Assembly: GCF_039614715.1 (NCBI RefSeq)
Contig: NZ_CP154857.1
Coordinates: 2,418,001-2,482,000, forward strand
Length of the DNA stretch: 64,000 nt
Direction: 5' to 3'
From: Microbacterium sp. AZCO
GTDB lineage: Bacteria; Actinomycetota; Actinomycetes; Actinomycetales; Microbacteriaceae
The notes beneath the pieces are model-generated. The model saw only the letters and a list, made by a program, of their open reading frames with translations, made no database searches and was not told where the DNA came from. Positions 14,371 through 57,040 of the stretch are shown here, piece after piece; the stretch's first letter is position 1, and each line of letters starts with the position of its first letter. A program made the translations under genes and the position numbers.

Positions 14371-14415
14371 CGAACCCACCTGATTACCTTCCATGTGCCA
14401 GCTTCCGCTGACGCG

Positions 14416-14488
<73 letters not shown>

Positions 14489-21503: not shown

Positions 21504-23030
21504 ATGGATGCCACGGCCGAGGCCCCGACGCTGCGTGCGCTGCTGAAGCGGCGCGAGCTGCACCTGCGCCTCGAGGGCGACGAGGACGACCTCGCACCCG
21601 GCGCCCTCGACCAGTACGTGCGCTGGGTGCACAGCTCCGACCTCGCCGACCCCACGCCCTTCCTGTCCGAGGGCCTCGCGCTCCTCACCACGGGGACGCA
21701 GTTCCGGGATGCCGGTGACGAGACGTTCCACTCGTACGTGCACCGTCTCGCGGCGCGGGGCGTCGTAGGACTCGGGTTCGGCACGGAGGTCGTCCGCGAC
21801 GGCATCCCTCCCGCCCTCGCGGAGGCGTGCCGCGACGAGCGGATGCCGCTCTTCGAGGTGCCCTACCGCACGCCCTTCATCGCCGTGGCGCGAGCGAACG
21901 CCGAGGCGATCGCGGCCCAGGCCTATGCGCGGCGCAGCTGGGCGCTCGCGGCGCAGCGCGCCATCGCCCTCGCGGCGCTCCGCCCCGACGGGCTCGGCGC
22001 GACGCTATCCGAGCTGGCCCGTCAGCTGGACACCTGGGTCGGGCTCTTCGACGCCGCGGGCGTGCTCACCCGCGAGCATCCGACCCGCGGTCTGGACGAC
22101 GTCGTGCTCGACGAGCTCGCCGACGAGGTGGGTGCCGTGCTGCGGCGCGGCGCACGCGCCGGGTCGTCGCTGCGCATCGGCGGCGCCCCCTTCACGATGC
22201 AGACGCTCGGGCGCGGCGGACACCTGCGAGGCGTCATCGCGATCGCGGCCGGCGAGCTCGACCAGGAGGGCCGCGGCGTCGTGACGTCGGTCGTCGCGAT
22301 GGCGGGGCTCGCCTTCGAGCAGCAGCAGAGTCTCGCCCGCGCGCACGACCTCCTGCGCGCGGGCCTGGTGCAGTCGCTCCTGACGGGAGACGCCGCCCTC
22401 GCGCGCCGCATCGCGCGCGACCTGTGGGGCGGGCTCCCCGCCGCTCCGGTTCGGATCGCGGTGACGGATGCCGCGGCCGCGCGCTCCGACGCCGTGTCGG
22501 AGTGGCTGACGCTCCGCGCCGCGGAGATGCGCGGCTCGGTCTTCCACGGCCGCGCCGAGGACGCGCTCGTCGTCGTCGCGCACGACGACGAGGTGTTCGA
22601 CGAGCTCGCGACCCGGTTCGAGGCGCGGCTCGGGGTGTCCGAGCCGGTGCCGTACGCCGAGTTCCCCGACGCCCACGCCCAGGCGGTCACGGCGCTGCGC
22701 CGCGGGACCGAGCCCGTCACGAGGTTCCGCGAGATCGCGGCATCCGGCGTCCTCTCGGCGCTGGACTCCGAAGCCGCCCGGTCGCTCGCCGCCGCCCGGC
22801 TGGCCCCGCTGCGCGAGCACGACGCCGAGCAGGGCACCGCGCTCGTCGACACCGTGCGGTCATGGCTCGAGCACGATGCGCGCATCGACGCCGCCGCGAC
22901 GGCTCTCGGGGTGCACCGCCACACGGTGCGCGCCCGGATCGGCCTCGCCCAGCGCCTCCTCGGCACCGACCTCACCTCATTCGCCGCGCGGGCCGACCTC
23001 TGGGCCGCGCTCCAGGTCGCGCGCGACTGA
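21504..23030 (+). CDS. PucR-family transcriptional regulator
   Basis: A 508-residue regulator. The N-terminal PucR domain (about 10-135, starting TLRALLKRRELHLRL) senses a metabolite; the middle is the GGDEF-like linker of this family; the C-terminal helix-turn-helix (DAAATALGVHRHTVRARIGLAQRLLG, about 460-488) is the PucR/CdaR HTH_30. Members control purine, GABA and polyamine catabolism, and divergence from gabT suggests it activates GABA/putrescine genes (inference). Its last codons and stop are included in the first unit of the tandem repeat array that follows. Confidence 0.88.
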   Translation: MDATAEAPTLRALLKRRELHLRLEGDEDDLAPGALDQYVRWVHSSDLADPTPFLSEGLALLTTGTQFRDAGDETFHSYVHRLAARGVVGLGFGTEVVRDGIPPALAEACRDERMPLFEVPYRTPFIAVARANAEAIAAQAYARRSWALAAQRAIALAALRPDGLGATLSELARQLDTWVGLFDAAGVLTREHPTRGLDDVVLDELADEVGAVLRRGARAGSSLRIGGAPFTMQTLGRGGHLRGVIAIAAGELDQEGRGVVTSVVAMAGLAFEQQQSLARAHDLLRAGLVQSLLTGDAALARRIARDLWGGLPAAPVRIAVTDAAAARSDAVSEWLTLRAAEMRGSVFHGRAEDALVVVAHDDEVFDELATRFEARLGVSEPVPYAEFPDAHAQAVTALRRGTEPVTRFREIAASGVLSALDSEAARSLAAARLAPLREHDAEQGTALVDTVRSWLEHDARIDAAATALGVHRHTVRARIGLAQRLLGTDLTSFAARADLWAALQVARD

Positions 23031-23446
23031 CGTCGGCGCGACCCGCGCGCGAGAGCGCGTCGCGCGCGCGGGCATAACTCCTCAAAGTCGGCCCCACTCC
23101 CGCGTGGGTCGCGGCGTGTCGGGTCAAGCAGGGGCCGGAATTGAGGAGTTGGTGCCCGGGTCGCGCGCGACTGACGTCGGCGCGACCCGCGCGAGAGGCT
23201 GCCGCCCGCGCGGGCATAACTCCTCAAAGTCGGCCCCGCACCTGCGTGGGTCGCGGCGTGTCGGGGTCAAGCAGGGCCGATCTTGAGGAGTTGGTGCCCG
23301 GGTCGCGCGCGACTGACGCCCGCGCGACCCGCTGGAGAGCTGCCGCCCGCGCGGTCATAACTCCTCAAAGTCGGCCCCGCAGCTGCGTCGGTCGCGGCGT
23401 GTCGAGACCGCGCACGGCCGGTCTTGAGGAGCTGGTGCCCGGGGGT
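23015..23446. repeat. Three tandem copies of a ~143-bp unit with an internal long-range hairpin
   Basis: Units start at 23015, 23159 and 23301, each opening GGTCGCGCGCGACTGACG and ending GGTGCCCGG. Each carries AACTCCTCAA and, about 55-60 bases later, TTGAGGAGTT (23076-23085/23141-23150; 23218-23227/23283-23292; 23359-23368/23424-23433, the last with one change). In unit 1 the stem extends inward through CGGCCCC/GGGGCCG. The first unit includes the PucR stop codon and the third ends on the stop of the convergent RamB-like gene, so the array fills the whole 415-bp gap between the two genes. No coding region is seen in it. Confidence 0.92.
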
Positions 23447-25130: not shown

Positions 25131-26795
25131 ATGACACCTGCAACCACCACCCCGATGCGCACGCGCACCCAGCCCATCCCCACTCAGACCCACGAGCCCG
25201 CCATCGAGGTCACAGGTCGTCTCGGAGCGCGCTACGACGAGATCCTCACGCCCGCCGCGCTCACGTTCCTCGCGGAGCTGCACGACCGCTTCGGCGCCCG
25301 CCGCCACGACCGGCTCGCCGACCGGCTGCGTCGCCGCTTCGAGATCGGCAACGGCCACGACCCGCAGTTCCGCGACGACACGCGTCACATCCGCGAGGAC
25401 GCGGAGTGGAGGGTCGCGGGCGCCGGTCCGGGTCTCGAGGACCGCCGGGTCGAGATCACGGGGCCGACCGACCCCAAGATGACGATCAACGCGCTCAACT
25501 CGGGCGCCAAGGTGTGGCTCGCCGACCAGGAGGACGCCACCAGCCCGACCTGGCGCAACGTGATCGAGGGTCAGCTGAGCCTCTTCGATGCGATCCGCGG
25601 ACAGCTCGAGTTCACGAGCCCCGAGGGCAAGCGGTACGAAGTCACGGCGACCGAGACGCCGACGATCGTGATGCGTCCGCGCGGCTGGCACCTGCCCGAG
25701 AACCACATCCGCTACACCGACCGCGCCGGTCGCACCATGGCGACCTCCGGGTCGCTCGTCGACTTCGGGCTGTACTTCTTCCACAACGCGCACCAGCTCA
25801 TCGCGAACGGCCGGGGCCCGTACTTCTACATCGCCAAGCTCGAGTCGAGCGAAGAGGCGAGGCTGTGGGACGACGTCTTCACGTTCAGCGAGCGGTATGC
25901 CGGCATCCCGCACGGCACGATCCGCGCCACGGTGCTCATCGAGACGCTGCCGGCGGCGTTCGAGATGGAGGAGATCCTCTTCGAGCTGCGCGACCACATC
26001 GCGGGCCTCAACGCCGGCCGCTGGGACTACATCTTCTCGATCATCAAGAACTACCGCGGACGCGGGGCCCGCTTCGTGCTCCCCGACCGCAGCGAGGTCA
26101 CGATGACGGTGCCGTTCATGCGCGCCTACACCGAGCTGCTCGTGAAGACGTGCCACAAGCGCGGGGCGTTCGCGATCGGCGGGATGAGCGCCTTCATCCC
26201 GAACCGCCGGGATCCTGAGGTGACCGAGCGCGCCTTCGAGAAGGTCGCCGCGGACAAGAAGCGCGAGGCCGGCGACGGCTTCGACGGCACGTGGGTCGCG
26301 CACCCCGACCTCATCCCGGTGGCGCGCGCCCAGTTCGACGCCGTCCTCGGCGACCGGCCGAATCAGCTCGACCGGCAGCGGCCGGAGGTCGAGGTGTCGG
26401 CGTCGGATCTCATCGACGTGCACATCGGACGACCCGTCACAGCAGCCGGCGTGCACGGCAACGTCTCGGTGGCGATCCGCTACATCGAGGCGTGGCTGCG
26501 AGGGCTCGGTGCCGTCGCGATCGACAACCTCATGGAGGATGCCGCGACCGCCGAGATCAGCCGCAGCCAGGTGTGGCAGTGGATCCACCAGGACCAGACC
26601 ACCGAGGACGGCACCGCGATCACCCGCGAGTACATCGAGTCGCTGATCACCCAGGTGCTCGGCGAGGCCGGCCGGACGACCGGCGACCGCTTCGACGACG
26701 CCACCGAGGTCTTCCGCGAGGTCGCGCTGGGCGCCGACTTCCCGGCGTTCCTGACGCTGCCCGCCTACTCGCGGTTCCTGACCCAGACCGCCTGA
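25131..26795 (+). CDS. aceB: Malate synthase A
   Basis: A 554-residue malate synthase that condenses glyoxylate with acetyl-CoA to malate in the glyoxylate shunt. Family segments are clear: WLADQEDATSPTWRN, MRPRGWHLPENH (catalytic Arg region), FIPNRRD and YIEAWLRGLGAVAIDNLMEDAATAE near the C-terminus that holds the general base. The length matches form A. It is followed by aceA 112 bases downstream on the same strand and divergent from the RamB-like regulator, so growth on acetate or fatty acids is the likely inducing condition. Confidence 0.96.
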   Translation: MTPATTTPMRTRTQPIPTQTHEPAIEVTGRLGARYDEILTPAALTFLAELHDRFGARRHDRLADRLRRRFEIGNGHDPQFRDDTRHIREDAEWRVAGAGPGLEDRRVEITGPTDPKMTINALNSGAKVWLADQEDATSPTWRNVIEGQLSLFDAIRGQLEFTSPEGKRYEVTATETPTIVMRPRGWHLPENHIRYTDRAGRTMATSGSLVDFGLYFFHNAHQLIANGRGPYFYIAKLESSEEARLWDDVFTFSERYAGIPHGTIRATVLIETLPAAFEMEEILFELRDHIAGLNAGRWDYIFSIIKNYRGRGARFVLPDRSEVTMTVPFMRAYTELLVKTCHKRGAFAIGGMSAFIPNRRDPEVTERAFEKVAADKKREAGDGFDGTWVAHPDLIPVARAQFDAVLGDRPNQLDRQRPEVEVSASDLIDVHIGRPVTAAGVHGNVSVAIRYIEAWLRGLGAVAIDNLMEDAATAEISRSQVWQWIHQDQTTEDGTAITREYIESLITQVLGEAGRTTGDRFDDATEVFREVALGADFPAFLTLPAYSRFLTQTA

Positions 26796-26907: not shown

Positions 26908-28503
26908 ATGACCACCTATCACGACGACATCGAGGCGATCCAGGCGCTGAAGGCGCAGCACGGCGAGACCTGGCATGCCATCGACCCCGAGTCCGCCGCC
27001 CGGCTCCGCGCGCAGAACCGATTCCGCACGGGACTCGAGATCGCCCAGTACACGGCCGACATCATGCGGCGCGACATGGCGGAGTACGACGCCGACTCGT
27101 CGGTCTACACGCAGTCGCTCGGCGTCTGGCACGGCTTCATCGGCCAGCAGAAGCTGATCTCGATCAAGAAGCACCTGAAGTCCACGAACAAGCGCTACCT
27201 CTACCTGTCGGGGTGGATGGTCGCGGCGCTGCGCTCGGAGTTCGGGCCGCTTCCCGATCAGTCGATGCACGAGAAGACCGCGGTGCCGGCTCTCATCGAG
27301 GAGCTCTACACGTTCCTCCGGCAGGCCGATGCCCGGGAGCTCGACCTGCTGTTCACGCAGCTCGACGGCGCGCGGGCCGCGGGCGACGAGACGGCGGTCG
27401 AGTTCATCCAGTCGCAGATCGACAGCTACGAGACCCACGTGGTGCCGATCATCGCCGACATCGACGCGGGCTTCGGCAACCCCGAGGCCACGTACCTGCT
27501 CGCGAAGAAGATGATCGAGGCGGGCGCCTGCGCGATCCAGATCGAGAACCAGGTGTCCGACGAGAAGCAGTGCGGCCACCAGGACGGCAAGGTCACCGTT
27601 CCCCACGAGGACTTCCTCGCGAAGGTGAACGCGGTGCGGTACGCCTTCCTCGAGCTCGGCATCGACAACGGGATCATCGTCGCCCGCACCGATTCGCTGG
27701 GCGCGGGCCTCACGCAGAAGCTCGCCGTCTCGACCACCCCGGGCGACCTCGGCGACCAGTACAACGCGTTCCTCGATGTGGAGGAGATCGGCGAGAGGCA
27801 GCTCAGCGACGGCGATGTGGTGATCCGCCGTGACGGACGGCTGCTGCGGCCGAAGCGCCTGCCGAGCAACCTGTACCAGTTCCGCGCCGGAACCGGCGAG
27901 GAGCGCGTCGTGCTCGACTGCATCACGTCGCTGCGCAACGGAGCCGACCTGCTGTGGATCGAGACGGAGAAGCCGCACATCGAGCAGATCGCCGGCATGG
28001 TCGACGCGATCCGCAAGGAGGTCCCCGACGCGAAGCTCGTCTACAACAACAGCCCGTCGTTCAACTGGACGCTCAACTTCCGCCAGCAGGCCTACGACCA
28101 GCTCGCGCAGCAGGGCGAGGACGTCTCGGCCTACGACCGGGCGGACCTCATGAGCGTCGACTACGACGACACGGAGCTCGCTCGACTCGCCGACGAGAAG
28201 ATCCGCACCTTCCAGCGCGACGGCTCAGCGCGGGCCGGAATCTTCCACCACCTCATCACGCTCCCGACGTACCACACGGCCGCCCTGTCGACCGATGACC
28301 TGGCCAAAGGATACTTCGGCGACGAGGGCATGCTCGCCTACGTGCGGGGCGTGCAGCGCCGCGAGATCCGCGAGGGCATCGCCACCGTGAAGCACCAGAA
28401 CATGGCCGGAAGCGACATCGGCGACAACCACAAGGAGTACTTCGCCGGCGACGCCGCGCTCAAGGCGGGCGGCCAGCACAACACGATGAACCAGTTCAGC
28501 TGA
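26908..28503 (+). CDS. aceA: Isocitrate lyase, long (~530-residue) form
   Basis: A 531-residue isocitrate lyase. The active-site signature is KQCGH (220-224) within SDEKQCGHQDGK, instead of the KKCGH of E. coli-type enzymes; PSFNWTLNF and the Mg-binding IIADIDAGFGN (181-191) are intact. The length and signature match the longer isocitrate lyase subgroup known from Pseudomonas and Acinetobacter rather than the ~430-residue form common in actinobacteria. It splits isocitrate to succinate and glyoxylate and pairs with aceB. AAGGA lies upstream of ATG 26908. Confidence 0.95.
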   Translation: MTTYHDDIEAIQALKAQHGETWHAIDPESAARLRAQNRFRTGLEIAQYTADIMRRDMAEYDADSSVYTQSLGVWHGFIGQQKLISIKKHLKSTNKRYLYLSGWMVAALRSEFGPLPDQSMHEKTAVPALIEELYTFLRQADARELDLLFTQLDGARAAGDETAVEFIQSQIDSYETHVVPIIADIDAGFGNPEATYLLAKKMIEAGACAIQIENQVSDEKQCGHQDGKVTVPHEDFLAKVNAVRYAFLELGIDNGIIVARTDSLGAGLTQKLAVSTTPGDLGDQYNAFLDVEEIGERQLSDGDVVIRRDGRLLRPKRLPSNLYQFRAGTGEERVVLDCITSLRNGADLLWIETEKPHIEQIAGMVDAIRKEVPDAKLVYNNSPSFNWTLNFRQQAYDQLAQQGEDVSAYDRADLMSVDYDDTELARLADEKIRTFQRDGSARAGIFHHLITLPTYHTAALSTDDLAKGYFGDEGMLAYVRGVQRREIREGIATVKHQNMAGSDIGDNHKEYFAGDAALKAGGQHNTMNQFS

Positions 28504-28511
28504 GAATCGAG

Positions 28512-28550
28512 CACGGGATGCCGCGGCCCGCCGGGTCGCGGCATCCCGTG
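28512..28550 (+). terminator. aceA terminator
   Basis: CACGGGATGCCGCG (28512-28525) pairs perfectly with CGCGGCATCCCGTG (28537-28550) around an 11-base loop, nine bases after the aceA stop. A short TTCG follows instead of a T tract. Confidence 0.8.
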
Positions 28551-28637
28551 TTCGCGGGATCGGCGATTTGGGGGTCGCGCCGACCACCCGTGCGGGCGTA
28601 GCTTCAACTCGAACGACGAGGGCTGCCGGGGGGCAAC

Positions 28638-31600
28638 GTGAGCACCGTCTATATACTTCTGCGCGCCGACGACATGGTCGTGGTCGGGGTGCGATGGACT
28701 GAACTGGATCTGGTCGACGGCGCGCTGCGCGCTCGCGGGCCGGGGGCCACGATCACCGTCCTGTTCCCGCCGCAGCACGTGGCCGAGCAGGTCGACGCGC
28801 CGGGCTCTGCGCCGGATGACATCGGCGGCACGCCGGTGTGGCGGTCGCAGCTCGCCGCGGCGAGCGCCGTGACCTTCTCGGTCGCGCCCGACGCGGTCGT
28901 GCCGTTGAGCGTCGAGGGCGTGCTCGGGGCGGTCGCGAAAGCGGGATATGTCGCCGACGGCACGGTCATCGAGCTGCCGTGGCGCCTGCACATCGCTCCC
29001 GGCACGGCGACGTGGCGGCACGCTGCCACGCCTCTCGTCTCACCGGACGGTGTCGTGGGCCTCTGGCTCACGCGCGGAGCGGACCCGGCGACGACGGTCG
29101 AGCTGTTCGCGATCGACGACGGCGTCGCGCAGCAGGCCGATCCGTTCCCCCTCGCCCTCACGACCGCCGATCGCTCGATCATCGCGTCGCACGCGAGCAC
29201 GACGCCCGCGCATTCGCGCCGGCTCGAGCTGAGCGCCCTCGGCGGCTCGCTCTCGGCCGTGGGGCGCTGGCCCGACTTCGACTGGGAGCACGAGGCAGCC
29301 CTGGGGCGCGACGTCTTCGTCCACACCGTCGCACGCGTGCGCATGTATCCGTTCAACCACCAGGCGGAGCTCTCCTCGGTGTCGCGACGCGTCTTCGACC
29401 CCGCGACGGGGGTCGCGGTGCTCCGCAAGACGACGACGCTCACCTTCATCGACCCCGTCGCCCGGCCTCCGCGGTCCCGCGAGTTCCCGTTCGACGAGGT
29501 CGAGGTGCTGCAGACGGCGTACTCGGATCTGCCCGAGCAGCGCTGGGTGAACTTCACGCGGGGCAGCGCGATCCTCGGCGATCTGCAAGCCGAGCGCGAC
29601 AGCAAGGACGGTCGTCGCAGCGAGCTCGAGCCGATCGTGTCGGCCGAGATGGTGCGCGACCGCAGCTTCGACGAGCTGGTCGGCTCCGGGATGCCGGAGG
29701 CGCAGCGCCTCGTCGAGCTGCAGTCCGCGATCGACTCCATCGACGCGGAGCTCATTCCGGGCGAGCAGGCGTGGGCGGATGCGGGTCCGATCCAGGACCA
29801 GATCGACCAGCTCAGCCGTCAGATCGACGATCTCAACCGGACGCCCGTCGGACCGGACGGCTTCCTCGACCCGTCGATCAGCGACCAGATCCGCGAGCTC
29901 AGCCAGCAGATCTCCGACCTCAACGCGCAGATCGGCACGCTGCCGAGCGCGGCCCGCCTCTCCCAGCTGCACGCGCAGCGTGCGCCGCTGCAGGCCGAGG
30001 CCGACCGGCTCCGGCCCGCGATCGACGCCGAGAGCACCCGCGACCGCAGTCTCGACGAGCTTGTGTCCGCCGGCATGCCCGAGGCGGCGGAGTACCAGCA
30101 GCTCCTCGCCGACATCGCCGCGCTAGACGCGCAGATCCAGGTGGAGAGCACGTCGAAGCGCGATGAGCCGTGGTACTTCCTCCCCCGCGATGCGGCGGGA
30201 CTCATCCCCTTCCCCGTGCGGCTGCGCGGCGCCGCGGGAGACGTCGACGCCACCATCCCGATGATCGCCGTGCGCGAGTTCCAGCTCGATCCGATCGGGT
30301 CGCAGCCCGCGTTCGTCGCGGTGAGCGACCCGCAGACCATCGAGCGGCTGCAGCAGGAGTGGACGCAGGCCGCGGCATCCACCGTCCCTCTCGCGCCCAC
30401 GCGCGTCGACCTGGTCCGCGCGGCAGCCCCGGCCCCGGGGGACGTCCGCGTCGTGCACGCCCTCGAGATCGTAGGGGCGGTGACGGATGCCGGCTACCTC
30501 CCGCGCCTCGAGAGCTTCGCCATCGAGCTGCCCGAGGTCTCGACGCTCCTCTCCGACCTCGCGCCGGTGCCGTACACGTTCGCAGAGGAGTTCCTCGACG
30601 GCTCGCTCGACTCCGTGGTCTTCCGCACGGTCGGCGAGGCCGTGGATCTCAGCTTCATCGAGAACGCCCGCAACTCCGGCGCCCTGCTGTCGCCGCGCAT
30701 CCTCGCCGACGGGCTGTCGCGGGAGCTCGGTCCCGTCGCGATCGCGGGGATCCGCAGCCAGGCCGAGGGGCTGTTCGACGCTTCCCAGCTCTTCGCCGAC
30801 GGCGCGACGCTGCTCGGCTTCGACCTCGCGACGCTCGTGCAGCGGCTGCCCGTGCCGCCGGCCATCGTCACCGACCTCCTCGAGGGCAGGGCGCCGGTCG
30901 TGCGGATGACGTGGACCGACGTCGCGGTGCACTCGTTCGGGCCGTTCGTCGCGACCGACGACACGCGCCTCGACCTCGAGATGCAGGCCGGCCCGGACGG
31001 GTCGTTCATCACCTGCACGCTGCGCTCGTTCGCGCTCGCGCTGCCGATCCCCGAGCACGAGCTGCTGCGGCTCACCTTCACGGAGCTCGCATTCACCCAG
31101 AAGCCGGGCGAGGAGCCCGACCTCGACGTGTCGGGTCTTTCGGCCGAGTTCCGCAACGAGCTGAAGCTGCTCGAATCGCTCCAGAGCGCCGTGTCGCTCG
31201 GCGACGAGGGTCCGACGATCCGGGCGACCCCGGCCGGCATCTCCGCGAACTACCTGCTTCCGATCCCGCCCGTGACGGCGGGGTCGTTCCAGCTCAAGGA
31301 CATCGTGTTCCGCGCCGGCGTCGACGTGCCGTTCGGCAAGGAGCCGCCCAGGGTCGGGATCGGATTCGCATCACGAGAGCGCCCGTTCCTCGCGACGGTG
31401 CTGATGTTCGGCGGCGGCGGCTACGTCGACCTCGAGATCGACCACACCGGCATCCGCCGCATCGAGGCGGCGATCGAGTTCGGGGCCTCGATCGGGTTCG
31501 ACTTCTTCGTCGCCGAGGCCGAGGTGCATGTGCTGGGCGGCATCCGCTACACCCAGACCGGCAATGCGATCGCCGTGTCGGGATACCTGCGGATCGGCGG

Positions 31601-31994
31601 GTGCGTGCAGATCCTCGGCCTCGTGTCGGTGTCGATCGAGATGCTCGTCGCCCTTTCTTACGACAGCGGGTCGAACGCGCTCATCGGCCGCGCGACCCTC
31701 GTGATCGAGCTCGACCTCACGCTCTACTCCACGTCGGTCGAGCTGGACAGCGGCCCGTGGCGCATCGCCGGCGGCGACGAGTCGCCCGCGATCGAGCGGG
31801 TCGCGGCGCCCGATGCCGTCCGGGAGCGGGTCGCGGCGCCCGATGCCGTCCGGGACGGGGTCGCCGCCCGTGACGCCGGACCCGACGCCTTCCTCCTTCA
31901 GAACGACTCCGTGCGCGGCAATGCCGACGGTGCGGGGAACGACCCGGACCTGTTCGTCGAACAGTGGCGCTCGTACCGGGAGGCGTTCGCATGA
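28638..31994 (+). CDS. Giant protein of unknown function (1118 aa), first of a coupled pair
   Basis: Not recognised. No signal peptide and no transmembrane helix are evident. Residues about 1-320 are a beta-rich region. About 325-530 is a heptad-like coiled coil (for example ISDQIRELSQQISDLNAQIG) in which a motif occurs twice: VRDRSFDELVGSGMPEAQR and TRDRSLDELVSAGMPEAAE. About 560-1050 is another beta-rich region ending in a glycine-rich stretch (MFGGGGYVDLEIDHTGIRRI, EFGASIGFDFFVAEAEV) that reminds me of repeated modules in large actinobacterial proteins of unknown function. The C-terminus holds two exact 10-residue repeats, ERVAAPDAVR. GTG 28638 follows a G-rich site. Its stop overlaps the next start (ATGA). 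Confidence 0.85.
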   Translation: MSTVYILLRADDMVVVGVRWTELDLVDGALRARGPGATITVLFPPQHVAEQVDAPGSAPDDIGGTPVWRSQLAAASAVTFSVAPDAVVPLSVEGVLGAVAKAGYVADGTVIELPWRLHIAPGTATWRHAATPLVSPDGVVGLWLTRGADPATTVELFAIDDGVAQQADPFPLALTTADRSIIASHASTTPAHSRRLELSALGGSLSAVGRWPDFDWEHEAALGRDVFVHTVARVRMYPFNHQAELSSVSRRVFDPATGVAVLRKTTTLTFIDPVARPPRSREFPFDEVEVLQTAYSDLPEQRWVNFTRGSAILGDLQAERDSKDGRRSELEPIVSAEMVRDRSFDELVGSGMPEAQRLVELQSAIDSIDAELIPGEQAWADAGPIQDQIDQLSRQIDDLNRTPVGPDGFLDPSISDQIRELSQQISDLNAQIGTLPSAARLSQLHAQRAPLQAEADRLRPAIDAESTRDRSLDELVSAGMPEAAEYQQLLADIAALDAQIQVESTSKRDEPWYFLPRDAAGLIPFPVRLRGAAGDVDATIPMIAVREFQLDPIGSQPAFVAVSDPQTIERLQQEWTQAAASTVPLAPTRVDLVRAAAPAPGDVRVVHALEIVGAVTDAGYLPRLESFAIELPEVSTLLSDLAPVPYTFAEEFLDGSLDSVVFRTVGEAVDLSFIENARNSGALLSPRILADGLSRELGPVAIAGIRSQAEGLFDASQLFADGATLLGFDLATLVQRLPVPPAIVTDLLEGRAPVVRMTWTDVAVHSFGPFVATDDTRLDLEMQAGPDGSFITCTLRSFALALPIPEHELLRLTFTELAFTQKPGEEPDLDVSGLSAEFRNELKLLESLQSAVSLGDEGPTIRATPAGISANYLLPIPPVTAGSFQLKDIVFRAGVDVPFGKEPPRVGIGFASRERPFLATVLMFGGGGYVDLEIDHTGIRRIEAAIEFGASIGFDFFVAEAEVHVLGGIRYTQTGNAIAVSGYLRIGGCVQILGLVSVSIEMLVALSYDSGSNALIGRATLVIELDLTLYSTSVELDSGPWRIAGGDESPAIERVAAPDAVRERVAAPDAVRDGVAARDAGPDAFLLQNDSVRGNADGAGNDPDLFVEQWRSYREAFA
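31794..31883 (+). repeat. In-frame 30-bp tandem repeat
   Basis: Two identical 30-bp units (31794-31823 and 31824-31853), each encoding ERVAAPDAVR, followed by a diverged third unit (31854-31883, DGVAARDAGP). They lie in the C-terminal tail of the giant protein. The multiple-of-three length keeps the frame. Confidence 0.9.
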
Positions 31995-34900
31995 GCACGA
32001 TCGTCTTCGTCTCGCTCCCCCAGCCCGGCGGGCGCGTGTCGGTGCTCGTCGTGCCACGCCTGACGGGCTCGCTCACCGAGGGCGGGATGGCGGACTGGGC
32101 CGCCGATCTCGCCGCGGCGGAGTTGGAGCTCGTCTCCGACCCGGGCGGCAGCGCGCCGGTCCGGCTCGCGGCGGCGCCCGACCCGCAGCTGTGGCGCTCG
32201 GTCTTCCCCGCGACGACGCCCGTCGTGCCGTTCGCCCCGGTGGCCTATGAGAAGCCGCGGGTGGAACCCTCGGCATCCCTCCACGACCGCATCGGCGAGA
32301 CGTACGCCAACTCGGCGAAGGCCGTCGCGGCGGGCGGCGCCGAGGCCGACGCGAGGGTGCGCGAGCAGCTCGCGACGTGGGACGAGCCGGACGACGAGAG
32401 CCCCGCGGCCCCCGTCGGCACGGGTCAGTGGGTCGAGCCGGACTTCCACCGGTCGGTGTCGCTGCTGCGCGAGCATCCCGCCGTGCTGCGCGCTCTCGGG
32501 CTGATCTTCGACATCGAGCCGCCGGCCGGCATCGTCGGGGCCGGCGGACGGCTGCGCGTGCGCTGGCCGTCGAACCCGGCCATCGTGTCGCCGTGGACCG
32601 CGTACGAGCGCACCGACCGCGGCCTCGTGCCGAAGGCCGGCGGCGACGTCACGGCCGGCATGGTCGACCTCGGCACGCCGGACTGGGCCGTCGCGTCGGT
32701 CGACATCCTGGGCGGTGCCGGACGTCTTCGGGATGCCGCGCGCGCCGTCGCTGCCGGGGGCGACGCCGTAACGCTGCCGACGCTGCGCTCGCAGGGCATG
32801 TCGCTGCTGCGGCGCGGCCGCGCCGATGCGCTCGAGGCCCGCCGCACGGCGGCTGCCGCGCATGGCGCCGACCTCGGCGAGACGACGTTCGCGGCGGACG
32901 ACCTCGTGCTGGGCTACCGCGTCGACATCCGCCGGCAGGGGTCGCCGTGGCGCTCGGTCACGGCACGCCTCGCGACCTATCAGCTGAACGGGATGCCGGT
33001 CGGCCAGCCGCAGATGCCGGACGACGGACACGTCAAGCCCAACGCCGTCGTGCGCGAGGACGACGGCACGCTTCGCGCCGACGAGGTCGTCGCGCGGTGG
33101 GACGGCTGGAGCCTCGCGGTGCCCCGCACGGCACCGGGCACCCGCAACGCCACCGGCCCGCGGCTGCCCCTCCCGTTCGACTTCGTCGCCGACCTGGCCG
33201 TCGAGCGCGGCACGCTGCCGTCGCTGCGATTCGGCGAGGAGTACCGGATGCGGGTGCGGGTCGCCGACCTCGCGGGCGGCGGGCACGCGGTCGACAGTCC
33301 CGAGGCCGACTCCTTCTCCACCGACTTCACGACCTATCGGCGCTACGAGCCCATCGGTGCGCCGCTCATCACGCTCGATCCGAACGGAGGCGACTCGCTC
33401 GCGGCGGGCGAGGGCGTAGAAGAGCTCGTCATCCGAAGCGACCGCGGCCTCGACGTCGCGGCGTTCGCGGCGCAGCATCCGCAGTATCCGACCGCCGTGA
33501 CCCGGCAGCTCGCCCCGCCGGTCACGTCCCTCCGCATCGCCGAGGAGCACGGCGCGCTCGATCACGTGAGCGACGAGGTGATCCGGGATGCCGCGGCCAC
33601 CGGCACGATCGTCGACCCCGCCGCCGGCGGGGTGCTGCTCACGGTTCGCAACGCGCCCGGCACGGTCGCCGCGGGCGCCGCGATCGACCGGGACTGGTCG
33701 GGATCGTGGCCGGCCCTCGCGCCGAAGTCGCTGACGCTGTCGGCGCCCGAAGGCACGCGCCCGCGCATCGAGTGGGAAGGTGAGGTCGCGCGACTGCGTC
33801 TGGGTCCGGCGGAGCAGCTGACCCTCGACATCTCGTCGTTCTTCGCCGACGGGGTGGCGACGCAGTTCGAGATCTCGGAGTGGCTGCGCGAACTGCCGAC
33901 GACGGCGATCACGACCGGCCGCCATCCGATGGCGACACCGCCGCGGCCGGTGCGGTTCGTCCACGCCGTCCGCAAGCCGCGCACGGATCCGGCCGGGACG
34001 CTGCAGCCGCAGCGGACCCCCTCCGCGACGCATGCGATCCTCGCCCCCTCGACGCCGACGCTGGGGGTCGACGTCGCCAGCACGGCCCAGGTCGACCTGG
34101 ACGCGACGTGGCAGGAGTGGAGGGATGCCCCCGAGCCGACGACCGCCGTCGACACGATCCCGTCGCTGACTCTCGAGCTCGGCGCCCCCGCGCTGCCCGA
34201 GATCCGGCACGAGTTCGCCGACACGAAGCACCGCCGCGTGACGTACCACGCGACCGCGGTGAGCCGCTTCCGACGGTACTTCGACGCCGACGAGCCGGCC
34301 GAGGCGTTCATCGCGGATGCGACCCTCGCCGAAGTGCGCATCCCGAGCTCGGTCCGCCCGCCGCGGCCTCTCGTGCGCGCCGTCACGCCGGCCTTCCGCT
34401 GGACGGGCACCGACCTCCCCACCGGATGGACGCGCGTCGAACGGCGACGGGCGGGAGGCATCCTGCGCGTCGAGCTCGCGCGCCCCTGGTTCGAGACCGG
34501 GCAGGGCGAACAGCTCGCCGTCATGGTGTGGGATTCAGCGGGCCCGCCGCCCGCGAACGTCGATGTCACCCGCACAGGCAGGGACGCGATCCGCGCCACC
34601 ACGCCGCTGCTGTCGTTCCCACCGCTCTCTGTCTTCGCCGACCCCGACGGCGCGGTGTTCCGCGACCAGGGGGTCACCGCGGTGCCCTACGACGTGTGGT
34701 TCGCCGACGACCGCTGGTGGGCCGACGTCCCGGTGCCCGGTGTCGCAGCGGCGTCGTACTCTCCGCTCGTCCAGCTCGTCGTGGCGCGCTATCAGGCCGA
34801 CAGCCTCGACGGCCTTCGCCTGTCGGAGCCGGTCAAGACCGACCCCGCGCCCGTGCTTCCCGACCGCACGCTCGTCGTCGAGCGCGGCGGCGGCACGATC

Positions 34901-35212
34901 ACGGCGACCCTCCAGGGGCTCGCCCCCACGGCACCGGGCAACACCGTGCACGTGTCGATCGAACGCGCCGACGTCGCGGCGGGCGTGGAGGCCGCCGATC
35001 CGCTCGGCTCGGGTGAACCGGCCTGGCGCCCGGTCCAGAGCTCCTCGGGTGCGATCGGCACGCGCATCCAGCTGGCGCTTCCGGCGGACGGTGCGGCGCA
35101 CCGCCTCGTCGTGCGCGAGACGGAGGACATCCCGGGCGATGAGGTCACGGACGCCTCTCCTCCCGAGCTCGTCTCGCGGACGGTGTTCGTCGACGTCATC
35201 GCCCTCGGCTGA
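31991..35212 (+). CDS. Giant protein of unknown function (~1073 aa), second of a coupled pair
   Basis: Not recognised. It starts MSTIVFVSLPQPGGRVSVLVVPRL, echoing the MSTVYILL opening of its partner, and shares the ATGA overlap with it. No signal peptide or membrane helix is apparent. The protein is rich in beta-strand-like segments separated by prolines; regions such as FADTKHRRVTYHATAVSRFRRYF (about 738-760) and VRIPSSVRPPRPLVRAVTPAF (about 780-800) look like boundaries of immunoglobulin or fibronectin-like domains, and the last 150 residues again look like such a domain. The pair is probably a structural or surface-associated complex, but nothing in the sequence proves this. It occupies 6.6 kb between aceA and a YCII gene. 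Confidence 0.85.
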   Translation: MSTIVFVSLPQPGGRVSVLVVPRLTGSLTEGGMADWAADLAAAELELVSDPGGSAPVRLAAAPDPQLWRSVFPATTPVVPFAPVAYEKPRVEPSASLHDRIGETYANSAKAVAAGGAEADARVREQLATWDEPDDESPAAPVGTGQWVEPDFHRSVSLLREHPAVLRALGLIFDIEPPAGIVGAGGRLRVRWPSNPAIVSPWTAYERTDRGLVPKAGGDVTAGMVDLGTPDWAVASVDILGGAGRLRDAARAVAAGGDAVTLPTLRSQGMSLLRRGRADALEARRTAAAAHGADLGETTFAADDLVLGYRVDIRRQGSPWRSVTARLATYQLNGMPVGQPQMPDDGHVKPNAVVREDDGTLRADEVVARWDGWSLAVPRTAPGTRNATGPRLPLPFDFVADLAVERGTLPSLRFGEEYRMRVRVADLAGGGHAVDSPEADSFSTDFTTYRRYEPIGAPLITLDPNGGDSLAAGEGVEELVIRSDRGLDVAAFAAQHPQYPTAVTRQLAPPVTSLRIAEEHGALDHVSDEVIRDAAATGTIVDPAAGGVLLTVRNAPGTVAAGAAIDRDWSGSWPALAPKSLTLSAPEGTRPRIEWEGEVARLRLGPAEQLTLDISSFFADGVATQFEISEWLRELPTTAITTGRHPMATPPRPVRFVHAVRKPRTDPAGTLQPQRTPSATHAILAPSTPTLGVDVASTAQVDLDATWQEWRDAPEPTTAVDTIPSLTLELGAPALPEIRHEFADTKHRRVTYHATAVSRFRRYFDADEPAEAFIADATLAEVRIPSSVRPPRPLVRAVTPAFRWTGTDLPTGWTRVERRRAGGILRVELARPWFETGQGEQLAVMVWDSAGPPPANVDVTRTGRDAIRATTPLLSFPPLSVFADPDGAVFRDQGVTAVPYDVWFADDRWWADVPVPGVAAASYSPLVQLVVARYQADSLDGLRLSEPVKTDPAPVLPDRTLVVERGGGTITATLQGLAPTAPGNTVHVSIERADVAAGVEAADPLGSGEPAWRPVQSSSGAIGTRIQLALPADGAAHRLVVRETEDIPGDEVTDASPPELVSRTVFVDVIALG

Positions 35213-35318
35213 GGCATCCCGTCGTCGGGGAAGATTCTTTTCGCGCGTTTCGTCGACCTTTCCTCGCGTCGTTCGACGCACTGAGCAGTAACGTCGCTCG
35301 AACGGAAAGGACACAGCG

Positions 35319-35654
35319 ATGAAGTACCTCATGCTCGTGGTGGTCGACCCCAGCCTGGAGAAGGACGGCGAGCCGCCCGTCACGATCGAAGAGTGGGTGG
35401 GCGAGACCTACGGCAACGGCAAGGCCACGGACGGAGACCGCCTGCGCCCGCCCGCCGACGCGAAGACGATCCGCCGTCGGGGCGGCAAGGTCATCGTCAC
35501 CGACGGACCGTTCGCCGAGACGCACGAGTGGATCGCGGGCTTCGACATCCTCGACGTCGCCGACCTCGACGAGGCGATCGAGGTCGCTTCTCGGCATCCC
35601 ATGGCCACCGACGGCATCATCGAGCTGCGGCCCGCCTGGCCCCTCGACCTCTGA
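35319..35654 (+). CDS. YCII-related (DGPF-domain) protein
   Basis: A 111-residue protein of the YCII superfamily: MKYLMLVVVDP at the start, the DGPFAETHEWIAGFDILDV motif (about 69-87) and the conserved SRHPMA (about 97). Family members are small dimeric proteins, often encoded next to an ECF sigma factor of the ECF41/42 type; no sigma gene is adjacent here, only a convergent membrane protein. AAGGA lies 11 bases upstream of ATG 35319. Confidence 0.85.
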   Translation: MKYLMLVVVDPSLEKDGEPPVTIEEWVGETYGNGKATDGDRLRPPADAKTIRRRGGKVIVTDGPFAETHEWIAGFDILDVADLDEAIEVASRHPMATDGIIELRPAWPLDL

Positions 35655-35663
35655 TCGGACGGC

Positions 35664-35993
35664 TCAGGCTCTGGGCGCCGCGCGACGCGCGCCGGCCAGG
35701 GCCTGGGCCTCGGCTTCGGCCTCGCGGGCGAGGCGCTGCGCGCGGATGCCGCTGGCCAGCACCCAGGCGAGCAGCCACACGACGGTGATGAGCAGGATGC
35801 CGAACGAGGTGCGCAGCGCGACGTCCTGATCGGGCATGACGAGGAGCGGGACGAGCGACAGCACGCCACCGACGACCGTGCCGACGGCACCCGTGAGCGC
35901 CAGGCCGCAGGAGCCCCACAGCCACCACACCAGCCCGCCGGCCGCGACGAGCGCGACCGACGAGATCACCGCTCCCCACAGCAACTCGTCCAT
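35664..35993 (-). CDS. Small integral membrane protein
   Basis: A 109-residue protein from ATG 35993 (MDELLWGAVI). Three hydrophobic segments are visible (about 5-27, 29-50, 60-82), followed by a charged Ala/Arg/Glu-rich tail. I do not recognise a family. The upstream part of the open frame would overlap the divergent aminotransferase and is not credible. Convergent with the YCII gene. Confidence 0.7.
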   Translation of the reverse strand: MDELLWGAVISSVALVAAGGLVWWLWGSCGLALTGAVGTVVGGVLSLVPLLVMPDQDVALRTSFGILLITVVWLLAWVLASGIRAQRLAREAEAEAQALAGARRAAPRA

Positions 35994-36099
35994 CGAGGCC
36001 CAGAGTACGCGCTTTCCCGGGCGAACACAGGACCACCGGCGGCGTAACGGCGGCTGACGTCTCAGGCGAGGCATCCCGCGCCCGGGTACGCTCGAAGGC

Positions 36100-37299
36100 G
36101 TGACCGAACGCGCCCCACTCTCCCGCAAGCTGTCCGCCATCGCCGAGTCCGCGACCCTCAAGGTCGACGCCAAGGCCAAGGCCCTTCAGGCGGCAGGTCG
36201 TCCGGTCATCAGCTACGCGGCGGGCGAGCCCGATTTCGCCACCCCGCAGTTCATCGTGGACGCCGCCATCGAGGCGCTCCACGACCCGGCGAACTACCGC
36301 TACACGCCCGCGGTCGGCCTTCCCGTGCTGCGCGAGGCGATCGCCGCCAAGACGCTGCGCGACTCGGGCCTGGAGGTGCAGGCGTCGCAGGTCGTCGTCA
36401 CGAACGGCGGCAAGCAGGCGGTGTACCAGGCCTTCCAGGCCGTCGTTAACCCGGGCGACGAGGTGCTCCTCCCAGCTCCGTACTGGACGACGTACCCCGA
36501 GGCCATCGCCCTCGCCGACGGCGTGCCGGTCGAGGTCTTCGCCGGCGCCGACCAGGACTACAAGGTGACGGTCGAGCAGCTCGAGGCCGCTCGCACGCCG
36601 AAGACGACGGCGCTCGTCTTCGTGTCGCCCTCGAACCCGACGGGCTCGGTCTACACCGCCGACGAGACGAAGGCGATCGGCGAGTGGGCCGTCGAGCACG
36701 GCATCTGGATCATCTCGGACGAGATCTACCAGAACCTCGTCTACGAGGGCACGCGCGCCGTCTCCATCGTCGAGGCGGTTCCGGATGCCGCGGACCAGAC
36801 GATCCTCGTCAACGGCGTCGCCAAGACCTACGCCATGACGGGCTGGCGGCTGGGCTGGATGGTAGGCCCCGCCGACGCCATCAAGCTGGCCGCGAACCTG
36901 CAGTCGCACCTCAGCTCGAACGTCAACAACGTCGCCCAGCGCGCCGCCCTCGCGGCACTGACGGGCCCGCAGACCGAGGCCGAGGACTTCCGCCTCGCGT
37001 TCGACCGCCGCCGCAAGCTCATCGTGTCGGAGCTGTCGAAGATCGAGGGCGTCACGGTGCCCAACCCGCTCGGCGCCTTCTACGCCTACCCCGACGTCAC
37101 GGGCCTGCTCGGCCGCGAGTGGCGCGGCAAGCGCATCGAGACGTCTCTCGAGCTCGCCGACCTCATCCTCGACGAGGCGGAGGTCGCCGTGGTCCCGGGC
37201 GAGGCGTTCGGCCCGTCCGGCTACCTCCGCCTGTCCTACGCGCTCGGCGACGACGCGCTGCTCGAGGGCGTGAAGCGCATGCAGGAGCTGTTCGCGTAA
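36100..37299 (+). CDS. Pyridoxal-phosphate aspartate aminotransferase (class I beta type)
   Basis: A 399-residue class I/II aminotransferase. [22 protein letters not shown] (about 167-177) and the PLP-Lys motif [15 protein letters not shown] (about 235-249, Lys in the NGVAKTYA part) match the thermostable aspartate/prephenate aminotransferase subgroup. It would exchange amino groups between aspartate or glutamate and 2-oxo acids. GTG 36100 is the start. In related actinobacteria a gene like this lies beside murB and tRNA-Trp-secE; here murB is close but secE is 22 kb away. Confidence 0.9.
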
Positions 37300-52514: not shown

Positions 52515-52814
52515 CGCGCGATGGGAGCTCAGGAGTCGTCATCGTCGGCTGCTCTTCCTCGCGCACGCGCGATCGGGTGGCGATCGGACACGATCGTGTG
52601 GCCGATCCCTTGAAGCGACGACTCGATCTTGCGCCCCGATGCACCTCCTGCGCGTGAATTTGCGCACAATTCGACGGGGAGTGCGGTCGACCACGCGTGG
52701 CTCAGCGACCTCGCCGCGTGACGGAGGCGCACCGGTGGACGAAGACGTGGGCGTCGGGCGTCGGGCGTCGGGCGTCGGGCGTCGGGCGTCGGCAGTCACC
52801 CGGCAACCGACGGG
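52515..52814. other. Intergenic region with heptamer repeat and LacI-like palindrome
   Basis: No gene is seen. GGGCGTC occurs six times in exact tandem (52749-52790). GAATT-TGCGCAC-AATTC (52656-52672) is a dyad with 5-bp arms that could be the autoregulatory site of the LacI gene (start 52514). Confidence 0.7.
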
Positions 52815-56044: not shown

Positions 56045-56953
56045 ATGATCATCGACACGTCAGACAGGGACGTCACGGCCGAAGCCCTCAGCCACAGCTT
56101 CCCGGGGCTCGGGCTCGCACCGAGCTCGGACGGGCGCCCGTTCCGGTTCTTCCATTCCCGCGAGCAGCGGGGCTTCATCACCTACTCGCGCATAAGCGTG
56201 GCGGGCTCCCTGCGAAGCGTGGGCTCCTACCCGGAGGAGTTCGCAGTGGCTCGTCGGCTCGGCGGGAAGGTCTCACTGGAGTACGGCGCGCACGCGATCG
56301 ACACCAGGGGTCCCTACCTTCGCCCCCCCGGGAGAATCCATCGTCCGCTTCGCGGACTCCCGCACCGAGCTCATCAGCCTGGAGCCTGCGCTCGTCAGAG
56401 TCCATGCCGCGCGCTATCTGGAGGGATCCGGCCGACGACTGCTGTCGCCCACCCCTGAGCGCAGCAGGCCCTCCTCGCACGGCGCACGGCTGCGACAGCG
56501 AACCTGGTCGCGGAGGACCGCGGCGATTCTCCTGTCTTGTCGAGCGTGGTGCGGGATCTCGTGATCGCCACCTTGCTCGTCGCATTTCCCGTGACGGCAG
56601 AGGTTGCGCCGGCGTCGGGCGTGAATGCCCTCCCCCGAGCAATCCGGCGGGCGACCGCTTACATCGAGGAGAACCTCGCCGCACCCATCTCCGTCACCCA
56701 GATCGCCGACGCTGCGCGCATCTCGGTGCGCACTCTGGAGTACGCCTTCCGCCGTCACTTCTCGACGACACCCGGCGCGTATCTTCGGGTGGCCCGGCTG
56801 CGACAGGTGAACGCCGAGCTGCGAGATGCGGATCCGGCCACGACGACCGTCGCCGACGTGGTCCGGCGGTGGGGCATCACCCTCCAGGGCCGCTTCGCCG
56901 CAGAGTACCGCGCGGAATTCGGAGAGAACCCCTCCGAGACGCTGAGACGCTGA
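56045..56953 (+). pseudogene. AraC-family regulator broken by two compensating indels
   Basis: The N-terminal frame from ATG 56045 (MIIDTSDRDVTAEALSHSF...) and the C-terminal AraC helix-turn-helix (about 56640-56945; TAYIEENLAAPISVTQIADA, ISVRTLEYAFRRHFSTTPG) are in the same frame, but about 120 bases between them (56330-56455) make sense only in another frame (ESIVRFADSRTELISLEPAL). An extra C in the C7 run at 56323-56329 and a missing G near 56458 would account for this. The first shift leads to a TGA at 56456. Without the indels it would be a normal ~300-residue AraC regulator. Confidence 0.72.
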
Positions 56954-57040
56954 GCCGCGCAGCCGCTGAGCCGCTGAGCGGGAAGAGCCGCTGAGCCGCT
57001 GAGCGGGAGGAGCCGCGAGCGCCTGAGCGGCGACAGCCGC
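56941..57040. repeat. GCTGAGCCG-type short tandem repeats
   Basis: From the 3' end of the AraC-like gene, GCTGAG(C/A)CG units recur about eight times. A 21-bp block at 56971-56991 is repeated at 56996-57016 with one change. Intergenic; probably slippage-generated. Confidence 0.8.

What the first reader, a model, noticed from the sequence alone, without database searches (positions are those of the whole stretch)
28638..35212. Coupled pair of giant proteins with no recognisable function
Seen: two genes of 1118 and about 1073 residues overlap by ATGA, both starting MST(V/I) plus a short beta strand. The first has a coiled coil holding two copies of an RDRS(F/L)DELV...AGMPEA-type motif and a Gly-rich beta region; the second looks like a chain of Ig/fibronectin-like domains. 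Neither has a signal peptide or membrane helix, yet the domain make-up looks like extracellular or assembly proteins. From memory, such large beta-rich proteins occur in actinobacteria and near contractile injection-like loci, but no sheath, tube or baseplate gene is visible here. The tight coupling suggests a 1:1 complex.
Basis: partly seen in the sequence, partly recalled or inferred. Interest (0 to 1): 0.85.

Follow-up and report, generated by a model that had tools for sequence, protein, structure and literature searches.

The report
Mobile pair of giant partner proteins
Two very large, undescribed bacterial proteins are made from neighbouring coupled genes that keep together in distant bacteria, and some relatives carry an export signal, a cell-wall anchor or sugar-binding add-ons, which suggests that they form one large recognition complex, at least sometimes at the cell surface.

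Summary
In detail: genes A (1118 aa) and B (1073 aa) overlap by ATGA. They are a conserved unit: A lies upstream of B, directly or one gene away, in 35 of 35 loci from four phyla; A's stop overlaps the next start by 4 bases in 24 of 35; A and B co-diverge (r 0.90, n 33). The unit is accessory: in 3 of 12 related sites fetched, isocitrate lyase and the YCII gene adjoin without it. No Pfam, NCBIfam, PHROG, PADLOC or PDB sequence family fits. Models: B ends in Ig/FnIII-like domains; A has a coiled-coil insert and a long amphipathic beta sheet. Relatives carry add-ons: PLL-type lectin propellers, WD40 propellers, tachylectin, CWB2 cell-wall repeats. In distant relatives A carries Tat-like signals (5 of 12 examined), B none (0 of 5), suggesting export as one folded complex. 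Best reading: an obligate A-B recognition complex, extracellular in at least some lineages. The window's pair has neither Tat-like signal nor propeller, so its location is open and its activity unknown. The contractile-injection idea is not supported.

The parts
28638..31994 (+). Gene A, 1118 aa, GTG start
   Evidence: 44 homologues; AlphaFold2 model mean pLDDT 85
28638..29567 (+). A N-terminal beta domain (residues 1-310), matched in 35 of 35 loci; PPQHxxE and GRD motifs stand in the majority consensus of distant relatives too
29574..30152 (+). A coiled-coil hairpin insert (residues 313-505); about 180-215 aa, about 70-100 aa or absent in homologues
   Evidence: Helices in the model; insert lengths
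29643..29702 (+). First copy of the RDRS(F/L)DELV..GMPEA motif
   Evidence: (family D4)
30027..30086 (+). Second copy of the same motif
   Evidence: (family D4)
30153..31772 (+). A core (residues 506-1045), matched in 35 of 35 loci; its later part gives the plasmid matches
31236..31748 (+). Long amphipathic antiparallel beta sheet (residues 867-1037)
   Evidence: resemblance to outer-membrane barrels
31782..31943 (+). Low-confidence, probably disordered linker (residues 1049-1102) with a 30-nt tandem repeat at 31794-31864
   Evidence: pLDDT under 50
31944..31991 (+). Conserved C-terminal tail helix of A, W..Y[RC].AF type (residues 1103-1118)
   Evidence: the tail precedes the fused C-terminal part in L008 and L029
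31991..31994 (+). ATGA overlap of the A stop and the B start
   Evidence: a like overlap at A's stop in 24 of 35 loci
31991..35212 (+). Gene B, 1073 aa
   Evidence: homologues; AlphaFold2 model mean pLDDT 91
33968..35209 (+). Tandem Ig/FnIII-like domains of B (residues 660-1073)
28542..35242 (.). Approximate inserted segment, absent between isocitrate lyase and YCII in genome G012

Best explanation
A and B are the obligate subunits of one large, beta-rich recognition complex carried on an accessory gene cassette. Translational coupling makes the two chains together and they assemble in the cytoplasm. A is the organising subunit: an N-terminal beta domain, a core ending in a long amphipathic beta sheet, an optional coiled-coil arm and a conserved C-terminal tail. 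B is a rod of Ig/FnIII-like domains with its own conserved N-terminal half. In many relatives a propeller (PLL-type lectin, WD40 or tachylectin), fused to A or B or encoded between them, supplies the ligand-binding end. In distant relatives the assembled complex leaves the cell through the Tat pathway on A's signal, with B hitch-hiking, and in one genome B ties it to the cell wall by CWB2 repeats. The window's version has the coiled-coil arm and no propeller or Tat-like signal, so it is either cytoplasmic or released by another route. SHOWN: pairing, coupling, co-divergence, modularity, presence or absence at one site, signal-like and CWB2 sequences in relatives. INFERRED: physical complex, co-export, recognition role. 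UNKNOWN: ligand and biochemical activity.
For: A with B in 35 of 35 loci; in a phylum sample B in 13 and A in 12 of 396 genomes (own genome included), all 12 A genomes also having B. The 4-base overlap at A's stop in 24 of 35 loci. A-core and B distances correlate, r 0.898, n 33, best of 999 permutations 0.285. Add-ons at different places: DUF346 (PF03984) over Pfam's cut-off in 5 of 10 N-extended A proteins scanned, below it in 2, not found in 3; a WD40 gene between A and B (2 scanned of 9 loci with room for it) or WD40 fused to A's C-terminus; tachylectin on B of L014. DUF346 is called a PLL-like lectin in PMC7778903 (passage). A tree of the A core needs at least 9 changes of add-on type. 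Tat-like signal on 5 of 12 distant A and on 2 of 48 proteins of the A searches (P0162, P0168); none on 5 distant B, 34 main-family B or 120 B proteins. Three CWB2 stretches on B of G301 (E 1.2e-49). Tat export of heterodimers with a signal on one partner is established (PMC10924467, passages).
Against: The window's A and all 35 main-family A examined lack a Tat-like signal, so extracellular location is not shown for the family that the finding belongs to. The window's pair has no detectable propeller. WD40 propellers are often intracellular (general knowledge). The Tat signals were called by a motif script, not by a trained predictor; 7 of 12 distant A lack one, of which G284 has a truncated N-terminus and G422 is the same record as main-family locus L034. 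CWB2 was seen in one genome only; G481 and G216, placed in the same genus as G301, lack it on B. On the tree, add-on types are clustered (12 changes against a shuffled mean of 22.8) and 8 of 33 inner branches are weak, so fewer swaps than 9 are possible. No complex was modelled or measured.
Confidence: 0.5

Rival explanations
1. In the signal-less main family, including the window's pair, the complex is cytoplasmic: an intracellular scaffold or carrier whose amphipathic sheet cradles lipids or other hydrophobic ligands, with Tat export as a side branch.
For: No Tat-like signal on 35 main-family A, the window's A or 34 main-family B. Eleven of 11 strands examined in A 867-1037 have a strongly hydrophobic face (contrast 2.9 or more), against 6 of 19 other A strands and 10 of 27 B strands. 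Weak Foldseek resemblance to ApoB100 and microsomal triglyceride transfer protein (E 4e-4 to 9e-4, TM-scores near 0.1). WD40 add-ons. One distant A (G388) has a sub-threshold Pfam apolipoprotein match (E 5e-5, 23 bits against a cut-off of 90).
Against: Lectin-type add-ons and CWB2 in relatives point outward. The structural resemblance is weak and shared with porins and ushers.
Confidence: 0.25
2. A and B are a released or surface-displayed two-component membrane-attacking complex: add-ons bind target glycans and A's amphipathic sheet inserts into the target membrane, a role in competition between microbes.
Against: No immunity gene or other gene recurs next to the cassette (at most 3 of 35 loci). 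Nothing shows membrane insertion. A hydrophobic face can equally be buried inside a barrel or against another domain.
Confidence: 0.12
3. The pair is a degraded or divergent piece of a phage tail or contractile injection system.
For: Phage tail proteins are among the weak Foldseek matches of A in the viral library, and the T5 tail tip is among B's FnIII-type matches (E 6e-6). Sub-threshold family matches: phage tail tube NF052337 on one distant B (E 0.009, 15.5 bits against 60), Mu GpP fourth domain on 1 of 43 A (E 0.007). One relative of B (P0036) is named 'Baseplate protein J-li...' by a source.
Against: No sheath family in the genome; PHROG matches only on the coiled coil; B has no match in 50,697 phage records and no viral contig was confirmed among 86 pattern matches; no recurrent neighbours.
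Confidence: 0.03

Closest known systems
Tat hitch-hiker heterodimers (periplasmic Ni-Fe hydrogenases, formate dehydrogenases; PMC10924467, passages seen)
   Same: Tat-like signal on A and none on B in distant pairs
   Different: No cofactor enzyme family recognised here; the window's pair and its close family have no Tat-like signal
PLL-type seven-bladed propeller lectins (DUF346, PF03984; PMC7778903 and PMC10481521, passages seen)
   Same: A DUF346 propeller is fused to the N-terminus of A in several relatives
   Different: In PLLs the propeller is the whole lectin (recalled); here it is an add-on to a core of about 900-1100 aa, and the window's A lacks it
CWB2 cell-wall proteins of Gram-positive bacteria (PMC8056022, passages seen)
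   Same: B of G301 ends in three CWB2 stretches
   Different: Seen in one genome only; the partner carries the export signal
Fibronectin type III / Ig-like rods
   Different: No Pfam FnIII match; B's N-terminal half is unassigned
Outer-membrane beta barrels (CymA, FhaC, LptD)
   Same: Long antiparallel meander with barrel-like alignment
   Different: No signal found; family occurs in Actinomycetota and Bacillaceae; barrel closure not shown

Membership tests
Contractile injection system or phage tail | Sheath, tube or baseplate genes in the locus or genome | tested here: not met
   PF04984 absent from the own genome, 0 of 1, while 3 of 14 control genomes rang; PHROGs; neighbours. Only the sheath was sought genome-wide
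Outer-membrane beta-barrel protein | N-terminal signal peptide | tested here: inconclusive
   No Tat-like motif on own A or 35 main-family A; hydropathy of the first 45 residues varies (15-residue maximum 1.57 in own A, up to 2.38 among 36 A) and no Sec predictor was available
Outer-membrane beta-barrel protein | Closed membrane-spanning barrel | tested here: inconclusive
Ig/FnIII superfamily (B, C-terminal part) | Structural resemblance to tandem Ig/FnIII domains | tested here: met
Ig/FnIII superfamily (B, C-terminal part) | Match to a curated FnIII or Ig sequence model | tested here: not met
   The only Pfam match to B is a noise hit at E 0.15
PLL-type lectin | DUF346 propeller in the window's own proteins | tested here: not met
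   met only in relatives
Tat-exported complex | Twin-arginine signal on one subunit | tested here: not met
   Not met for the window's pair; met by motif in 5 of 12 distant A proteins
Known anti-phage defence systems (PADLOC) | Match of A or B to a PADLOC model | tested here: not met
   A only to LmuB on the coiled coil at E 0.003; B none. The WD40 gene of L018 matches HEAT-ARM_XIII at E 9e-19 within its WD40 repeats, over 134 of 1972 model positions
LLTP lipid-transfer proteins (ApoB, MTTP) | Lipid cavity between large amphipathic sheets | tested here: inconclusive
   Weak Foldseek matches, TM-score near 0.1; lipid binding not testable here

The most novel reading that the evidence does not exclude
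A and B found a previously undescribed class of horizontally mobile two-chain surface complexes: one folded heteromer, exported by hitch-hiking on A's Tat signal, retargeted in evolution by plugging different propellers or cell-wall modules into different places, with an amphipathic beta sheet that engages a membrane or carries a lipid ligand.
Probability: 0.3. Interest if true: 0.78.

Novelty: categorically new. Interest (0 to 1): 0.6.

Why it matters
Two conserved families of large proteins (A about 870-1980 aa in the loci examined, B about 1000-1500 aa), present in Actinomycetota, Pseudomonadota, Bacteroidota and Bacillota, have no model in the copies of Pfam, NCBIfam, PHROGs and PADLOC searched here. 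The gene order tells which protein partners which, and the signal on A plus the wall anchor on B in distant relatives give a testable route of export. If the complex is shown, it would be a new kind of modular recognition device whose specificity parts have been exchanged several times in evolution. 'Categorically new' means that no described system fits the features tested; the mechanism may turn out to be of a known kind, and no profile-profile search against public libraries or AlphaFold DB was available.

Tried and rejected
Matches of A in Pfam, NCBIfam, PHROGs and PADLOC (DUF2730, DUF4407, FlxA, SbcC-like, ASRP, LmuB and the like) fall on the coiled coil and, where curated cut-offs exist, below them; rejected as coiled-coil noise, as were the PDB sequence matches of A. 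PDB searches with the profiles gave one match at E 0.92 for A and none for B. Over 43 A members, 14 Pfam families appeared at E 0.1 or below, each in 1 or 2 members.

Common origin of A and B: rejected (hhalign probability 0.2%). The MST start is chance.

Contractile injection and phage origin: disfavoured; the weak matches that point that way are listed under that rival.

A recurrent neighbour gene: none in more than 3 of 35 loci, by BLAST clusters of script-called genes within at most 10 kb, some loci being cut by contig ends. In 3 loci (L004, L010, L024) a 127-152 aa protein lies upstream of A; the one scanned (L024) has no Pfam match.

Viral structure library: only weak tail-fibre and porin-like matches for A; B was not searched there. 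The N-terminal halves of A and B were barely tested by the fold searches, so their folds are not claimed to be new.

Literature: eight searches with DUF6603, DUF346, WD40, tachylectin, giant protein, two-gene operon, twin-arginine, hitchhiker, CWB2 and PLL terms; no listed title or start of abstract describes this pair. Several lists were capped (10 of 20, 8 of 24, 6 of 7 papers shown). Only listings and the passages were seen; no paper was read whole. DUF6603 as a possible relative was recalled; it does not appear in the Pfam scans at E 0.1 or below.
Full report
WHAT IS THERE. Gene A (28638-31994, + strand, GTG start, 1118 aa) and gene B (31991-35212, ATG start, 1073 aa) are intact and overlap by ATGA. 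Upstream lies isocitrate lyase (26908-28503; Pfam ICL); an ORF at 25131-26795 reads like malate synthase (by eye, not searched). Downstream are a YCII-domain gene (35319-35654) and an aminotransferase-like gene (36100-37299; by eye). The window lies in a 4.23 Mb genome held as one contig. It has one tRNA gene at 14415-14488 and no other Rfam match at gathering threshold.

FAMILY. No curated sequence family fits A or B: Pfam, PHROGs, NCBIfam, PADLOC and PDB sequences give only coiled-coil noise for A, and for B one Pfam noise hit at E 0.15. Eight proteins of distant loci gave no Pfam family and one sub-threshold NCBIfam match (phage tail tube, E 0.009; one of the eight differed between the two calls). 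Of 43 A members, no family matched more than 2. The search with B gave 237 proteins at E 1e-3 or better, the query included (120 listed), and with A 44, so both are conserved families.

PAIRING. A scan of the genome collection with a B alignment (25 sequences) confirmed 35 loci of 81 pattern matches. All 35 have an A homologue (both the N-domain and the core matched) on the same strand, directly upstream or one gene away. They lie in Actinomycetota (28), Pseudomonadota (3), Bacteroidota (2) and Bacillota (2). In a sample of 396 genomes of the phylum, own genome included and only the two best candidates per genome scored, B matched in 13 and A in 12; all 12 A genomes also have B, and the thirteenth B match is marginal (G146, E 7e-4). 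At A's stop codon a 4-base overlap with a next frame that stays open for 50 codons (B, or the gene between) is present in 24 of 35 loci. Distances of A core and B correlate (r 0.898, n 33; best of 999 permutations 0.285); L003, where my script did not recover the B frame, and the truncated B of L027 and L033 were dropped. A and B share no detectable homology with each other.

MOBILITY. Among 58 genomes of the relatives sample, own included, only the own genome has this B; G396, of the same genus, has a distant type. Of 24 other genomes of the genus with full-length isocitrate lyase, 12 sites were fetched. In three of them (G012, G459, G025; L101, L094, L100) the YCII gene follows isocitrate lyase within about 100-160 bp, leaving no room for A and B. 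Alignment to G012 stops at 28541 and resumes at 35243, so about 6.7 kb were gained or lost. No tRNA gene adjoins; an integrase was not searched for. Distant relatives occur in the plasmid collection: 9 records for B and 17 for A, Streptomyces, Rhizobium and Cupriavidus among them. B has no match in 50,697 phage records, and no viral contig was confirmed.

ADD-ONS. N-terminal extensions of 300 aa or more occur in 13 of 36 A proteins. Of ten scanned, five pass the Pfam cut-off for DUF346 (L003, L013, L017, L028, L036), two fall short (L004, L020), and three have no DUF346 match (L006, L009, L026; the 1026-residue extension of L026 may be a misplaced start). DUF346 is described as a PLL-like lectin (PMC7778903, passage). 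Nine loci have room for a gene of about 700 aa between A and B; two of these were scanned and are WD40 proteins (L018, L026). In L008 (scanned) and L029 (by length) a WD40-type part is fused to A's C-terminus. In L014 a tachylectin propeller is fused to B. On the tree of the A core, add-on type needs at least 9 changes and the insert class at least 5; types are nevertheless clustered, and 8 of 33 inner branches are weak. So different propeller families have been attached to the same core at different places, several times.

EXPORT. In distant relatives A carries Tat-like signal peptides: 5 of 12 distant A proteins (G216, G262, G301, G481, G516; not G551, G378, G065, G221, G388, G422, G284) and 2 of 48 proteins from the A searches (P0162, P0168). 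G422 is the same record as main-family locus L034, and A of G284 lacks its N-terminal part, so the fair count is nearer 5 of 10. None was found on 5 distant B, 34 main-family B or 120 B proteins (own B included), nor on 35 main-family A or the window's A (sequences). Partial hits (G543, G471) were not used. B of G301, which lacks a signal, ends in three CWB2 stretches (PF04122, E 1.2e-49), a module that anchors surface proteins to the wall (PMC8056022, passages); B of G481 and G216, of the same genus, do not. A signal on one partner and a wall anchor on the other fit co-export of a folded complex, an established Tat mechanism (PMC10924467, passages). This is the strongest pointer to a physical A-B complex, and to the outside of the cell, but it comes from distant relatives, and the signal calls rest on a motif script.

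READING. I take A and B to be obligate partners of a large recognition complex (confidence 0.5), extracellular in at least some lineages. For the window's pair a cytoplasmic scaffold or carrier remains a serious rival (0.25), and a membrane-attacking complex a lesser one (0.12). A phage-tail or injection origin is unlikely (0.03): no sheath family in the genome and no recurrent neighbours, against a few sub-threshold matches.

LIMITS. No complex prediction, AlphaFold DB search or HHpred was available. The fold searches barely tested the N-terminal halves. The gene caller was a simple script. Family scans covered only some neighbours and add-ons, as counted above.

Noticed in passing
G396 (same genus as the host), contig C1 2245569-2253355 (L069, L070): A second, distant type of A-B pair in the same genus; its frames sit in very long overlapping open frames, so the gene ends are uncertain.
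   Followed up: partly
window 28503-36100 and L091-L102: The stretch between isocitrate lyase and the aminotransferase-like gene is variable in the genus: about 130 bp in some genomes, 2-5 kb of other content in others.
   Followed up: partly
L004:4984-5442, L010:5292-5675, L024:5362-5745: A 127-152 aa protein with a hydrophobic middle lies upstream of A in Bradyrhizobium and two Hymenobacter, hosts of different phyla; the copy scanned (L024) has no Pfam match.
   Followed up: partly
window 31794-31864: A 30-nt tandem repeat (two perfect copies and part of a third) in the probably disordered linker of A, possibly variable in length.
   Followed up: no
window 23015-23443: Three tandem copies of a 142-bp unit, 89% matches.
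   Followed up: no
window 52749-52792 and 56936-57040: Perfect heptamer array (GGGCGTC, 6.3 copies) and a separate array of 8/24-25-nt units.
   Followed up: no
window 31898-34249, minus strand: A 783-codon open frame antisense to B; probably an artefact of high G+C.
   Followed up: no
L088:16587-19100: A patatin-like phospholipase gene follows the A-B relatives on a Rhizobium plasmid; the association was not tested elsewhere.
   Followed up: no
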